NCBI GenBank assembly: GCA_024688505.1
Contig: JAILDZ010000015.1
Coordinates: 1-46,715 of the forward strand
Length of the DNA: 46,715 bases
DNA from: Lachnospiraceae bacterium
GTDB taxonomy: Bacteria; Bacillota; Clostridia; Lachnospirales; Lachnospiraceae
Direction of reading: 5' to 3'
Every line of letters begins with the position of its first letter. Position 1 is the first letter of the stretch. The notes under the pieces are model-generated. The model was not told the DNA's origin. It did not search any database and saw nothing but the letters and a program-made list of their open reading frames with translations. The translations under genes and the position numbers were made by a program. This document shows, in pieces, positions 42,170 through 46,715 of the stretch.

Positions 42170-42198
42170 TTGACATATAATATCATTTGTGCTAACAT
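42170..42198 (+). promoter_or_regulatory. Sigma-A-like promoter for the RyR/TIR operon
   Basis: TTGACA (42170-42175), 17-nt spacer, TAACAT (42193-42198); RBS AAGGAG at 42211. Confidence 0.55.
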
Positions 42199-42224
42199 TC
42201 GAATTTCTGCAAGGAGATTTCACT

Positions 42225-43670
42225 ATGATGAAAATTCTGAAAAAACTATTCCCAATACTGGCTGTGGTCCCCTTTATCATAGGTACTGCAGGCTTCAGGA
42301 TGGCAGGGTTGAACTGGGCCGATTCCTGCTATAATTCAGTATCCTTATATGTGATACAGTTAAATGAAGACTGTTCCAATATTTATATAGAGATCGCACG
42401 GTGGTCGGCAGCTATTGTGGCTACAGCCGCGGTGTTATCTATATTGAAGCAGGCAGGACTTTATCTTCTGAATCTTTTTTTAAGCATTTTGCCCGGAAGC
42501 GCAGCATTATACGGAAATGAAGAGATCGTACGGCAGATCTGCGATAAAGAAAAATACGCGTTTTTCGGAGGGAGTTCACCGGTAAATTCCAGGCATCATA
42601 TCATTTTGTATGATAATGATGCGGAGAACCTGAGTTTTTATCGTGATAATAAAGAGAAGATGAAAGGAGGATCCGTATGGCTTGCGGTCCGGGATCTTGA
42701 CCTTTCCTTTTTAAAAGCTGATAGCATTAATCTGCATTTCTTTAACCCAAATGCTTTGACAGCCAGGCTTTTATGGGATGATCCCGATCTTAATAAGATA
42801 ATAAAATCAAACAGGAATGCAAAGATAGTTTTACTGGGATTTGACAGCCTGGGAGAACAGATCCTCATGCAGGGCTTCCTTCATAATGTGTTTTATGAGG
42901 ACCAATCTTATGAATATCATGTCTTTGATGATAAAGTAACAGATCCTTTCGAAAAGGACCGTTTTATCTCCATGAATGAGGATAAGATCATTTTCCATGA
43001 CAGGGATATATCAGGTGATGACAATTTCGACCCGGACATCATTATATGTACCAAAGACATGGACTTTAATCTGATGGAAGAACTATGGCTTCGCTATCCA
43101 AATGCCCTGATATACTTCTATTCGGAATCAGACCTGAAGCTTCATGATTTCATGGTGGATGACAGAGTACGTTTCTTCGGAGAAGCAGACAGGGTCTATA
43201 CTCTTTCAAATATCATCACAGATAAGCTTTATGAAAACGGCATAGTCCTAAACTATAACTATGATCATAATGAGGCACCAATGCCTGATTATAAGAGCTT
43301 AAAGGCAGACCCTGCAGCATATAAAAATACCCGGGAATCCTGGGCCGGACTAAATGAGTTTACAAAAGGATCGAATATAGCTTCAGCGGATTATCTAAAG
43401 ATCGTGGGTATACTTTCATCTGAAGAGCCCTATAAGGACATGGACCCGGAGGAAAGAGACTGGTGCTTTGCCAGATTGGAGCATATCTTATGGTGCAGAT
43501 ATCATTTTATTAACCATTGGACATACGGCAGACCCGAAGACGGAAAGAATAAAGACAGCGTAAAGCGGATACACACGTGCCTTACAGACTTTCCAAATCT
43601 TACCGAAGAAAACCAAAGGAAGGATCTGGACGTTATACTTAGCGGTCGCAGATGGGGTATGACAAATTGA
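42225..43670 (+). CDS. 2TM channel-like / tandem Rossmann (TrkA-N/RCK-like) / C-terminal RyR-type domain protein
   Basis: Two N-terminal TM segments; Rossmann-like NAKIVLLGFDSLGEQILMQG; C-terminal EERDWCFARLEHILWCRYHFINHWTYGR...RIHTCLTDFPNLTEENQRKDLDVI resembles a bacterial RyR domain. Start at 42225 preferred for its RBS. Confidence 0.65.
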   Translation: MMKILKKLFPILAVVPFIIGTAGFRMAGLNWADSCYNSVSLYVIQLNEDCSNIYIEIARWSAAIVATAAVLSILKQAGLYLLNLFLSILPGSAALYGNEEIVRQICDKEKYAFFGGSSPVNSRHHIILYDNDAENLSFYRDNKEKMKGGSVWLAVRDLDLSFLKADSINLHFFNPNALTARLLWDDPDLNKIIKSNRNAKIVLLGFDSLGEQILMQGFLHNVFYEDQSYEYHVFDDKVTDPFEKDRFISMNEDKIIFHDRDISGDDNFDPDIIICTKDMDFNLMEELWLRYPNALIYFYSESDLKLHDFMVDDRVRFFGEADRVYTLSNIITDKLYENGIVLNYNYDHNEAPMPDYKSLKADPAAYKNTRESWAGLNEFTKGSNIASADYLKIVGILSSEEPYKDMDPEERDWCFARLEHILWCRYHFINHWTYGRPEDGKNKDSVKRIHTCLTDFPNLTEENQRKDLDVILSGRRWGMTN

Positions 43671-46663
43671 AATATAATGCATTTATAAGTTACAGACATG
43701 CCGATCCGGATATGTTTGTGGCTAAAGAGATACATAAAGGTCTCGAAACCTTTAAGGTGCCGGGAAGAATAAGGAAAAAGACGGGAATAAAGAAGATCGA
43801 GAGAGTATTCAGGGATCAGGAAGAACTGCCAATCGACAGTTCTCTTTCCGATAATATCAATACTGCCCTTGAGAATGCTGAATTCCTGATAGTTATTTGT
43901 TCTCCAAGACTTCTGGAATCCAGGTGGTGTCTCCAGGAGATAAGAACTTTTATCAAACTGCACGGAAGAGAAAGAATCCTGGCAGTGTTAGTGGAGGGAG
44001 AACCTGAAAACGCATTTCCGGAAGAGATCCGCTTCAATGAAAACGGTGATCCTGTAGAGCCTCTGGCGGCAGATGTACGCGGCACAAATCATAAAGAGAT
44101 CAAAAAGAAGATAGCATCAGAAAAGCTGAGGCTATTAGCTGCTCTTTTACATTGCTCCTATGATGATCTAAAGCAAAGGCACAGGGAAAGAAGGATCAAA
44201 CGGATCATGACCGCTATGGCGTTTGTTATGGCGCTTCTCATTGGATTTGCCGGATACTATGCATATACTGCCGCAAAGATCACAGAAAACTTTAAAGACA
44301 AGCAGGTGAACCAGTCTAAATATCTGGCTGATACTGCCATAAGCTGCCTTAAGGAAGGCGACAGGATGACAGCTATCCGGGTGGCCATGGAGGCGCTGCC
44401 TTCCGAAAATAATGACAGGCCGTATGTGCCAAAGGCTGAATATGCTCTAAACCGCACATTATATAATTATCATACGGGAAACGATCTGGTGGCAGACAGA
44501 TCACTTTCTGTGGGACAGACTGTTAAGGATTTTTATCTCAGTAATGATGGCATGTATGTCATAGTTACGGATTTAGGCAATAAAGCCACTGTTTTTAACA
44601 CAGAAAACGGCGATAAACTGCTGGAGATAAATCCTCCTGTAGCTTTAGATTACACCTTCATGACACTTTATGATGCCATTATCACAGCTGAAACACATGC
44701 AGTAGTGGCATTTTCAAAAAGCCTGGAATGCTATGATCTAAACGGGGAGAAACTCTGGGGTATAGATTCCGAGGATGAACTTAAGAAAGTCAGTGTATGC
44801 AGAGACGGCAGTGATCTGGTGGTGACATCCGCTAAATCTGTCTATATCGTTGATGAAAAGACCGGTGATATCAAAAACAGCGTGACTATGGAGGATGAAG
44901 ACCTATATATCGGTACCATGGCTAAAATGGCATACAGTACCGATGGGAGCCTGGTGGCCATTCCGTTAAGCCTTGGATCGAATTCCGAAAAAACCACAGG
45001 TTCCTTCATGGTATATGACTTTAAAGCCGGTTCATATAACATATATGACACTGAAAACAAGCATGTGATGGGGCTTAACTTTGACGATAACAATCATATC
45101 ATCGTTGTTTCTGACGGTGAAAATGAGAACCGCATTATAAACGGCACTCCGGTTATCGAATACTTAGACCTTTCTGACGGCGGACAAAAGAAATGGCAAA
45201 ACAGCTATAATTATGAAGTGTACACATTCTCCGGTTCTGATCTTAAGTCTTTTATCAGAGAATATACAGACAGCATGGGAGAGAAGCATCATGACTTCAT
45301 ATTCAGCCAGAATAATCTTCTGGAAGCCATTAATGTGGATACAGGAGAAGTGATAAGCACCTTTAATAAGAGCGAATCCGTTACCGCACTCTTTGTGATC
45401 AAAGAATGCGGCAATGTCATCACCATTGAAAGAAACGGTAATATGACATTCCAGAACACAGAAACCGGACATGAAAGCACTGATAATGCAACACAGATCG
45501 GCTTAGATATAAACGATGCCAAGAACTGTAACGGAGTAATCGCCACCAGCGGTTATATGAGCCCGGATGTGCTCATATTAAAGTATAAAGAAGGCCGGGG
45601 AATAGAAACAATCAATACATTTGAAAATGACGTGAAAAGCTGCCGCTTCAGTAAAGACGGTAAGCTGGTCGCTATTCAGGCAGGCTTTGAAAACGGTGTT
45701 CAACTTTTTGATTCCGACACCTATGAACTTAAAGGAGAGATCCTTCCCGAAGAACGTATAGACACCTGGGACATGACAGATGACGGTACTGTGGTCCTTT
45801 TCGGGAAAGATACACTGTATAAACTGAGCTCTGCAGACTTTAAGGTGTCTTCTGTCAAAACAGAAAACAGCAATTTCTCATCTTTTGCTTTTGATAAAGA
45901 ACACTCCAGATTTCTTGCATACAGAAACGGTGTATTTGTGGTAGATTATGATAATATGAAAGTGCTTTGCGATGCCGGTTATGATTCCGACGTGGTAAAA
46001 GCAAGTATAGGAGGAGAAAAGGGCGACAGTCTCTTAACCGTATATAAGGACAATTCCATCAAACTTTACGATATTTCAAAACAGGATGAAGTGGCCGATC
46101 TTTCGTCGGATGAAGTAAAAGTATATCTGGGGTATGGACTTGAAAATGATATAGATATTTCTCCGGACGGTAAAAGCGCAGTTTTAAATTGTATAGACGG
46201 CACTGCTAAGATAATTGATATGGGTAGCGGAAAAGTCATTGACAGCATTCCCTTCTATGGCAGCATGAAAGCATTCCTTCAGTTTTCACCCGACGGGAAG
46301 TATCTGCTGACACAGGGCGATGACTATTATTTCAGGGTTTATGATGTGGAAAAGCATGAAATGACCCATTATTCCGATTCACAGTATTATGAGATCCGTG
46401 AAGTCCGATACGAAGGTGACCATGCGGAACTTGTGAGCCTTTCAAGTATATACCTTCTGAACAGAGACACATGGGAGCTCACCTGTTATATAGACGAGGG
46501 ACTGGCGGTTTCCTTTGAAAAAGATCAGGTACTTTCTTCACATTATGAGACTCTCTACAGGTTTCCGTATTATGATCTTGCGGAGATGCTAAATATGGCT
46601 AAGGAAGAAGTTAACGGGCAGGAATTATCACCCGAAAAGAGACTACAGCTTAATATGGATTAA
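43652..46663 (+). CDS. TIR domain - TM - helical linker - beta-propeller (WD40-like) receptor-like protein
   Basis: TIR: YNAFISYRHADPDMFVAKEIHKGLE...FLIVICSPRLLESRWCLQEIRTFIKLHGRERILAVL; TM MTAMAFVMALLIGFAGYYAYTA; repeated propeller-blade-like segments (e.g. DISPDGKSAVLNCIDGTAKIIDMGSGKVI, QFSPDGKYLLTQGDDYYFRVYDVEKHEM). Confidence 0.88.
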   Translation: MGYDKLKYNAFISYRHADPDMFVAKEIHKGLETFKVPGRIRKKTGIKKIERVFRDQEELPIDSSLSDNINTALENAEFLIVICSPRLLESRWCLQEIRTFIKLHGRERILAVLVEGEPENAFPEEIRFNENGDPVEPLAADVRGTNHKEIKKKIASEKLRLLAALLHCSYDDLKQRHRERRIKRIMTAMAFVMALLIGFAGYYAYTAAKITENFKDKQVNQSKYLADTAISCLKEGDRMTAIRVAMEALPSENNDRPYVPKAEYALNRTLYNYHTGNDLVADRSLSVGQTVKDFYLSNDGMYVIVTDLGNKATVFNTENGDKLLEINPPVALDYTFMTLYDAIITAETHAVVAFSKSLECYDLNGEKLWGIDSEDELKKVSVCRDGSDLVVTSAKSVYIVDEKTGDIKNSVTMEDEDLYIGTMAKMAYSTDGSLVAIPLSLGSNSEKTTGSFMVYDFKAGSYNIYDTENKHVMGLNFDDNNHIIVVSDGENENRIINGTPVIEYLDLSDGGQKKWQNSYNYEVYTFSGSDLKSFIREYTDSMGEKHHDFIFSQNNLLEAINVDTGEVISTFNKSESVTALFVIKECGNVITIERNGNMTFQNTETGHESTDNATQIGLDINDAKNCNGVIATSGYMSPDVLILKYKEGRGIETINTFENDVKSCRFSKDGKLVAIQAGFENGVQLFDSDTYELKGEILPEERIDTWDMTDDGTVVLFGKDTLYKLSSADFKVSSVKTENSNFSSFAFDKEHSRFLAYRNGVFVVDYDNMKVLCDAGYDSDVVKASIGGEKGDSLLTVYKDNSIKLYDISKQDEVADLSSDEVKVYLGYGLENDIDISPDGKSAVLNCIDGTAKIIDMGSGKVIDSIPFYGSMKAFLQFSPDGKYLLTQGDDYYFRVYDVEKHEMTHYSDSQYYEIREVRYEGDHAELVSLSSIYLLNRDTWELTCYIDEGLAVSFEKDQVLSSHYETLYRFPYYDLAEMLNMAKEEVNGQELSPEKRLQLNMD

Positions 46664-46680: not shown

Positions 46681-46715
46681 ATGTATTTTTTATTTAGTGT
46701 ACTTGGAATCGGAGG
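46681..46715 (+). CDS. Start of a downstream gene, truncated by the window edge (MYFLFSVLGIGG...)
   Basis: AAAAAGGAG RBS and ATG 17 nt after the TIR gene stop; open to the window end. Confidence 0.55.
   Translation, partial: MYFLFSVLGIG

What the first reader, a model, noticed from the sequence alone, without database searches (positions are those of the whole stretch)
43652..46663. Toll-receptor-like topology: cytosolic TIR, single TM, extracytoplasmic propeller
Basic residues immediately before the only clear TM (KQRHRERRIKRIMTAMAFVMALLIGFAGYYAY) predict N-in/C-out by the positive-inside rule. That puts the TIR in the cytosol and about 750 aa of propeller outside. The post-TM helical stretch (SKYLADTAISCLKEGDRMTAIRVAMEALPSENNDRPYVPKAEYALNRTL) resembles the linker preceding WD40 repeats in STAND-WD40 proteins. 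The family may be common in Lachnospiraceae, but I know of no assigned function.
Basis: partly seen in the sequence, partly recalled or inferred. Interest (0 to 1): 0.7.

Follow-up and report, generated by a model that had tools for sequence, protein, structure and literature searches.

The report
TIR receptor paired with RyR channel
A gut/rumen bacterium carries a membrane receptor with an immune-type enzyme domain (TIR) inside and probably a large sensor outside, encoded next to an ion-channel-like protein bearing the ligand-binding domain of animal ryanodine receptors; together they look like a two-gene signalling (possibly anti-phage) system not named in the defence catalogues searched.

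Summary
ORF 43652-46663 encodes TIR (aa 8-165), one TM helix (aa 185-203), a helical linker and tandem WD40 propellers (aa 275-972; AlphaFold pLDDT 88; about 16 blades by strand count). All 73 homologues examined have the basic flank on the N side, so N-in/C-out is the best prediction, not proven. The family is common in Lachnospiraceae (59/397 genomes).

The gene overlapping the TIR start (42189-43670) encodes 2 TM, RCK-like Rossmann domains and a C-terminal RyR (Repeat12) domain. The residues conserved in all 16 aligned RyR proteins include those with which phage RyDEP binds the TIR-made signals 2'/3'cADPR (PMC13232231). The pairing is conserved in the closest relative (59% identity) and recurs: 25 of 62 RyR loci have a TIR gene within 3 kb, as do eight genomes of other Clostridia and a Butyrivibrio fibrisolvens plasmid.

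Best explanation: a membrane Thoeris-like module. The propeller senses a trigger, the TIR makes an ADP-ribose-type messenger from NAD+, and the RyR domain gates the channel. Chemistry, ion flux and anti-phage function are inferred. It is not a Toll receptor nor a catalogued Thoeris type.

The parts
42189..43670 (+). Partner gene: 2-TM, RCK-like, RyR-domain protein (493 aa from GTG; more likely start ATG 42225/42228, 480-481 aa)
   Evidence: ORF; RyR by Pfam (20.6 bits, below cut-off 27.4) and by a profile of 16 relatives against PDB (human/rabbit RyR1 Repeat12 E=4.5e-26); model; GsuK-like fold
42231..42485 (+). TM1 (aa 2-25), pore-helix-like segment (aa 30-39) and TM2 (aa 52-86) of the partner; K+ selectivity filter TVGYGD absent here, present in the relative L047
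   Evidence: AlphaFold2 secondary structure; alignment A2; Ion_trans_2 in L047
42501..43178 (+). two Rossmann (RCK/TrkA-like) domains of the partner, aa 92-317
   Evidence: GsuK, TrkH/TrkA
43467..43631 (+). RyR (Repeat12) domain; E418 H419 (43479-43484), W422 (43491-43493), H449 (43572-43574), D466 (43623-43625) invariant and equivalent to RyDEP H75, W78, H100, D117
   Evidence: residues of RyDEP from PMC13232231
43652..43670 (+). 19-nt overlap of partner stop and TIR start (translational coupling inferred); same overlap in closest relative L162
43652..46663 (+). TIR - TM - linker - tandem WD40 propeller receptor, 1003 aa
43667..44146 (+). TIR domain (aa 6-165); catalytic-type Glu E96 at 43937-43939 in W92-x3-E96, invariant in 52 relatives
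44204..44260 (+). single TM segment (aa 185-203) preceded by KQRHRERRIKR
44270..44458 (+). helical linker (aa 207-269), long helix aa 198-234 and two more helices
   Evidence: pairwise identity 0.50
44474..46567 (+). tandem WD40 beta-propellers (aa 275-972, about 64 strands), fast-diverging predicted sensor
   Evidence: pairwise identity 0.217
46681..46715 (+). start of a PrsW-family intramembrane protease gene 17 nt after the TIR stop (continues on contig C147); association not conserved, probably incidental

Best explanation
A two-gene membrane signalling module. The C-terminal propellers, placed outside the cell by an N-in single TM, sense an unknown trigger. This drives clustering or a conformational change of the cytosolic TIR, which converts NAD+ into an ADP-ribose-type messenger (most likely a cyclic ADPR isomer). 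The RyR domain at the C terminus of the co-encoded 2TM/RCK protein binds the messenger and gates its pore, changing ion flux and membrane potential and leading to growth arrest or cell death; the most likely biological use is anti-phage defence of a Thoeris-like kind. Shown here: domain anatomy, intact catalytic Glu and RyR ligand residues, conserved and recurrent gene pairing. Inferred: topology, TIR product, ligand of the RyR domain, ion conduction, trigger and defence role.
For: TIR Glu E96 in the position of the catalytic Glu of known TIR NADases, invariant (PMC10022894); TIR profile closest to plant TIR immune enzymes such as AT1G72930 and Roq1. The partner's RyR domain matches RyR1 Repeat12 at E=4.5e-26, and five of the six invariant columns over 16 divergent proteins are E-H-x2-W, H and D, the last four being the residues with which RyDEP holds 2'/3'cADPR (PMC13232231). 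RyR and TIR genes co-occur (19 genomes against about 9 expected, p=3e-4) and adjoin in 9 of those 19; a TIR ORF lies within 3 kb in 25 of 62 RyR loci; TIR neighbours of different architectures confirmed by Pfam in 7 of 7 tested; same theme in other Clostridia and on a B. fibrisolvens plasmid. The pairing arose in at least four places of the receptor tree and in several gene orders and strands. The closest relative keeps the pair and the overlap in another gene context. The partner's model resembles GsuK and TrkA, ligand-gated K+ channel/transporter parts, and the relative L047 carries a real K+ filter with RyR.
Against: No enzyme, binding, conductance or phage data exist. The partner's pore lacks a TVGYGD filter; its model is of moderate quality (7 sequences, pLDDT 64, RyR part below 50) and global TM-scores to GsuK are only about 0.33. 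37 of 62 RyR loci have no TIR within 3 kb, and most receptors of this family are next to a DHH phosphoesterase or neither partner (10 RyR, 46 DHH, 42 neither of 98). RyDEP's His/Asp dyad is catalytic, so conserved residues could mean degradation rather than sensing. No close homologue on phage contigs and no defence-island neighbours were seen.
Confidence: 0.5

Rival explanations
1. The RyR protein is the off-switch: its RyR domain cleaves or sequesters the TIR product, as phage RyDEP does, and the channel part only anchors or tunes it. The receptor family's other common partner, a DHH phosphoesterase that never occurs together with RyR, would fill the same slot.
For: RyDEP catalytic dyad His/Asp conserved; DHH next to 46 of 98 receptors, RyR next to 10, never both.
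Against: Six of eight tested phage RyDEP homologues bound cADPR signals, but the seven other than RyDEP itself did not degrade them (PMC13232231); fusion to pore and RCK domains, including a canonical K+ filter in relatives, points to an effector.
Confidence: 0.15
2. The TIR receptor acts alone as an NAD+-depleting effector triggered by the propeller; the neighbouring channel is a separate or merely co-regulated function.
For: Many relatives have neither partner (42 of 98); some bacterial TIRs deplete NAD+ (established knowledge).
Against: Recurrent pairing of RyR proteins with TIRs of quite different architecture.
Confidence: 0.13
3. The propellers are cytosolic (the hydrophobic helix is a peripheral or unusual membrane anchor) and sense an intracellular, for example phage-made, protein, as known Thoeris TIR proteins do.
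For: Propeller cysteine content 1.44% is nearer to cytosolic proteins (1.59%) than expected of exported ones (1.39%), p=0.02 against exported by rank test; the TM has low AlphaFold confidence (aa 186-200) and moderate hydrophobicity (1.85).
Against: Positive-inside bias in 73 of 73 homologues and a single TM; similar single TMs after the TIR in many TIR neighbours of RyR genes; the cysteine contrast between exported and cytosolic proteins is weak in this group.
Confidence: 0.22
4. Same TIR-messenger-channel circuit, but used for physiology (osmotic, envelope or host signals, K+ control) rather than phage defence.
For: RCK/GsuK-like partner; housekeeping gene surroundings in the window and in L162; presence in gut and rumen species.
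Against: Patchy distribution (59 of 397 family genomes, 1 of 4 in the genus), rapid divergence of the sensor (0.217 against 0.685 for TIR) and a plasmid copy are typical of conflict systems.
Confidence: 0.25
5. The downstream PrsW protease cleaves the receptor's TM and frees the TIR (regulated intramembrane proteolysis).
For: PrsW starts 17 nt after the TIR stop with a ribosome-binding-like GGAG; PF13367 117 bits.
Against: No PrsW beside any of 119 other receptor loci; in a congener PrsW sits elsewhere.
Confidence: 0.04

Closest known systems
Thoeris (ThsB TIR + ThsA effector)
   Same: TIR enzyme and a second protein with a domain that can bind ADPR-type signals, encoded together
   Different: effector is a RyR-domain channel-like protein, not SIR2-SLOG ThsA; TIR is in a membrane receptor with propellers; no PADLOC or NCBIfam Thoeris model fits the pair
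TIR + SLATT (2TM) systems (Burroughs and Aravind; PMC9503650)
   Same: TIR gene beside a 2-TM protein proposed to be an ADPr-derivative-gated membrane effector
   Different: here the 2-TM protein carries RCK-like domains and a RyR ligand domain; the TIR is a receptor-like fusion
RyDEP, phage RyR-domain proteins (PMC13232231)
   Same: RyR fold and ligand residues H, W, H, D
   Different: host gene, fused to a channel, beside the TIR instead of opposing it
Animal ryanodine receptors (Repeat12 domain)
   Same: RyR domain hung on a cation channel
   Different: small 2TM/RCK prokaryotic channel, C-terminal RyR, non-canonical filter
GsuK / MthK-type RCK K+ channels, TrkA
   Same: predicted 2TM plus tandem Rossmann layout
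   Different: extra RyR domain, no TVGYGD in this protein
Toll-like receptors
   Same: single TM, cytosolic TIR, predicted outside sensor
   Different: TIR N-terminal, WD40 propellers instead of LRR; TIR looks enzymatic

Membership tests
TIR domain family (enzymatic branch) | TIR fold by curated model | tested here: met
   PF13676, PF01582 and PF08937 all above cut-off
TIR domain family (enzymatic branch) | catalytic Glu | tested here: met
   E96 invariant, aligned with W-C-L-x-E of AT1G72930
TIR domain family (enzymatic branch) | NAD+ cleavage / cADPR product | not testable with these tools
   needs assay
Thoeris | TIR protein next to a signal-sensing effector gene | tested here: met
   overlapping RyR-domain gene; sensing itself not tested
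Thoeris | effector of a described type (ThsA or other PADLOC/NCBIfam Thoeris effector) | tested here: not met
   partner has no PADLOC or NCBIfam hit; relatives neither apart from K+ channel models
Thoeris | phage-triggered protection | not testable with these tools
   needs cloning and phage challenge
RyR (Repeat12, PF02026) | sequence profile match | tested here: met
   window alone sub-threshold (20.6 of 27.4 bits); profile of 16 relatives against PDB RyR1 E=4.5e-26
RyR (Repeat12, PF02026) | ligand residues H, W, H, D | tested here: met
   invariant over 16 proteins
RCK K+ channel | 2TM pore plus RCK layout | tested here: met
   model and GsuK/TrkA matches, moderate confidence
RCK K+ channel | TVGYG selectivity filter | tested here: not met
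   absent in the window protein; present in 17 relatives including TIR-linked L047
Toll-like receptor | extracellular LRR domain, C-terminal TIR | tested here: not met
   tandem WD40 propellers, N-terminal TIR
Toll-like receptor | N-out / TIR cytosolic with single TM | tested here: inconclusive
   single TM with basic N flank predicts TIR inside, orientation reversed relative to TLR; no experiment
STAND-WD40 | NTPase domain | tested here: not met
   no STAND/AAA hit

The most novel reading that the evidence does not exclude
A bacterial transmembrane innate-immune receptor: an outside WD40 double propeller detects phage or envelope attack, the inside TIR makes a cADPR isomer, and that messenger opens an ion channel through a RyR Repeat12 domain, making the cADPR-RyR link a prokaryotic immune pathway older than animal calcium signalling.
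Probability: 0.25. Interest if true: 0.9.

Novelty: new variant of a known kind. Interest (0 to 1): 0.66.

Why it matters
If true, it adds to TIR signalling a membrane receptor input and a channel output, and supplies a natural prokaryotic pair in which a TIR product could gate a channel through the very domain that sits on animal ryanodine receptors. Whether cADPR-type signals act on RyR through Repeat12 is an open question raised in PMC13232231; this pair (and the B. fibrisolvens plasmid copy, from a cultured strain) makes it directly testable. It would also explain a large group of unannotated Lachnospiraceae TIR proteins.

Tried and rejected
PrsW-linked intramembrane proteolysis: PrsW is downstream in this genome only, 0 of 119 other loci. 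Cysteine exclusion as a topology test: exported and cytosolic proteins differ too little in these genomes to decide. Empty-site comparison in the genus: the flanking CDF gene is not syntenic, so no clean empty site. Viral contigs: no relative of the receptor; the RyR alignment had no stretch conserved enough to scan. Plasmids: no match to the window's RyR protein by tblastn, though a distant RyR channel stands beside a receptor on pNP243. No paralogue of the receptor in the genome. The literature library lacks Burroughs et al. 2015, which I recall as discussing RyR domains in nucleotide-based conflict systems; I could not check how far it anticipates this pairing. Open-access searches found no paper describing a TIR-RyR-channel pair.
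Full report
WHAT IS THERE. Pfam finds TIR_2, TIR and ThsB_TIR above their cut-offs at aa 8-118 and many WD40/propeller models over aa 290-931. AlphaFold2 with 52 homologues gives pLDDT 88.1 and pTM 0.73: TIR at aa 8-165, a helix 170-192 spanning into the TM (low confidence 186-200), a long helix 198-234 and two further helices, then about 64 beta-strands from 275 to 972. At four strands per blade that is about 16 blades, i.e. two propellers; this is a count from secondary structure, not an inspected model. Foldseek returns tandem WD40 proteins (UTP/PWP2 proteins of the SSU processome, Apaf-1) first.

TOPOLOGY. Hydropathy shows one TM-like segment, aa 185-203, with the basic run KQRHRERRIKR before it. 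Among 73 homologues, all have the main peak at 180-202 and all have more K/R in the 15 residues before than after it (mean 6.3 against 2.2). The positive-inside rule then puts the TIR in the cytosol and the propellers outside. I tried to test this by cysteine content, since many Gram-positive bacteria exclude cysteine from exported proteins (own knowledge). In these genomes the contrast is small (cytosolic 1.59%, exported 1.39%) and the propellers (1.44%) cannot be assigned. So N-in/C-out is the best prediction and remains unproven.

FAMILY. Relatives occur in 59 of 397 genomes of the family and at least 523 stretches in GTDB contigs, nearly all Lachnospiraceae. Pairwise identity is 0.685 in the TIR, 0.50 in the linker and only 0.217 in each propeller half: a conserved signalling end on a fast-changing sensor end. 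TIR residue E96 (in W92-C-L-Q-E96) is invariant in all alignments and aligns with the W-C-L-D-E of the Arabidopsis TIR protein 3jrn; the closest solved TIRs are plant immune TIRs. The catalytic role of this Glu in TIR NADases is established (PMC10022894). Enzyme activity here is inferred.

THE PARTNER. The upstream ORF (42189-43670) overlaps the TIR start by 19 nt. Its RyR domain is sub-threshold by itself (20.6 bits against 27.4), but a profile of 16 relatives matches mammalian RyR1 Repeat12 at E=4.5e-26 and the Bacteroides putative RyR at 1e-13. Over these 16 divergent proteins the only invariant columns are S382, E418, H419, W422, H449 and D466. RyDEP, a phage RyR-domain protein solved with its ligand, uses H75, W78, H100 and D117 to hold 2'/3'cADPR (PMC13232231): H419-x-x-W422, H449 and D466 are the same residues, with the same 17-residue distance from the second His to the Asp. 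The N-terminal half is predicted as TM1, a pore-helix-like segment, TM2 and two Rossmann domains; the full-length Foldseek matches are GsuK (an RCK K+ channel) and TrkA. The model is moderate (7 sequences, pLDDT 64, RyR part under 50) and the K+ filter is absent in this protein, but 17 relatives, among them the TIR-linked L047, have TVGYGD. 'Channel' is therefore well grounded for the family and probable, not shown, for this member.

THE PAIRING IS NOT CHANCE. In the same 397 genomes, 59 have a receptor relative and 61 an RyR domain; 19 have both (about 9 expected, Fisher p=3e-4), and in 9 of the 19 they adjoin. Starting from RyR genes, 25 of 62 loci have a TIR ORF within 3 kb (one of these loci, L038, came in through the TIR search, and the HMM used was seeded with some of the neighbours, but Pfam confirms TIR_2 in 7 of 7 that I tested). 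These TIRs have different sensor parts: propellers, TPR, LRR, STAND or TM-linked regions. Outside the family, eight more Clostridia genomes show TIR within 1.5 kb of RyR. The closest relative, L162 (59% identity, red deer MAG), keeps the pair and the overlap between different housekeeping genes. Gene order varies: RyR upstream (window, L162, L047, L138-L140, L238), downstream (L038, L184, L141, the plasmid) and divergent (L231, L237). On a tree of the TIR-TM part the RyR label needs five changes, i.e. at least four separate associations. A complete plasmid of cultured Butyrivibrio fibrisolvens D1 carries such a pair, the RyR protein being called 'hypothetical'.

MECHANISM. The simplest reading is: propeller senses, TIR converts NAD+ to an ADPR-type messenger, RyR domain binds it, channel gates. 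Each step except the anatomy and the pairing is inference. The main rival on the partner side is that the RyR domain destroys the signal, as RyDEP does; the receptor family's other frequent neighbour, a DHH phosphoesterase (46 of 98 receptors), never occurs with RyR (10 of 98) and could be a terminator too. Against it, the phage paper reports that the seven tested homologues other than RyDEP did not degrade the signals, most binding only, and the fusion to a pore argues for output.

KNOWN OR NEW. TIR plus ADPR-sensing effector is Thoeris logic, and TIR plus a 2TM SLATT protein has been proposed as an ADPr-gated membrane system (PMC9503650). A TIR receptor with predicted outside propellers and a RyR-domain channel-like partner is in neither PADLOC 2023 nor NCBIfam 2026, and the open library has no paper on it. 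I recall, and could not check, that Burroughs et al. 2015 discuss RyR domains in prokaryotic conflict systems. I file it as a new variant of a known kind.

LIMITS. The genome is a 77%-complete draft and the window is one whole contig; the next contig (C147) was joined only by an 84-nt match at its end. Several counts depend on greedy ORF calling.

Noticed in passing
L043:4947-6464, and next to 46 of 98 receptor genes: The commonest partner of TIR-TM-propeller receptors in Lachnospiraceae is a ~505-aa DHH-DHHA1 phosphoesterase with an extra C-terminal domain, upstream, downstream or convergent, never together with RyR. Possible signal-degrading or nucleotide effector partner.
   Followed up: partly
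window 46681-46715 and L032 10564-11439 (-): PrsW-family intramembrane protease starts 17 nt after the TIR gene; the window contig C52 and contig C147 join here.
   Followed up: yes
L269 (NZ_CP146964.1 81818-94828): Butyrivibrio fibrisolvens D1 plasmid pNP243 carries a TIR-propeller receptor (WP_167562754.1) followed by a RyR-domain channel-like protein annotated hypothetical (WP_073389489.1).
   Followed up: partly
L121, L123, L124, L131, L132, L135-L137, L142-L144, L147, L149, L150, L152, L156: A second class of RyR proteins with a canonical TVGYGD K+ filter, mostly without a TIR nearby; some in tandem with a second RyR protein.
   Followed up: no
L102-L108, L242-L250: Free-standing ~95-aa RyR-domain proteins beside RyR channels and TIR genes, possibly host-encoded sponges or antidotes.
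   Followed up: no
L128:5932-9195, L251: RyR channel next to a TIR fused to BspA-type LRR_5 repeats, a TIR-LRR arrangement in a bacterium.
   Followed up: no
L204, L201: Two or three receptor paralogues in tandem (913/1012/1011 aa; 1001/1025 aa).
   Followed up: no
L034 / L172 (G025): A receptor gene interrupted by one in-frame TAG (396 + 632 aa), probably decaying.
   Followed up: no
G052 and G365 (L133, L134; L033, L007): Genomes with the next-closest receptors also hold close RyR channels (47% identity) but on other contigs, the receptor being next to a DHH gene instead.
   Followed up: partly
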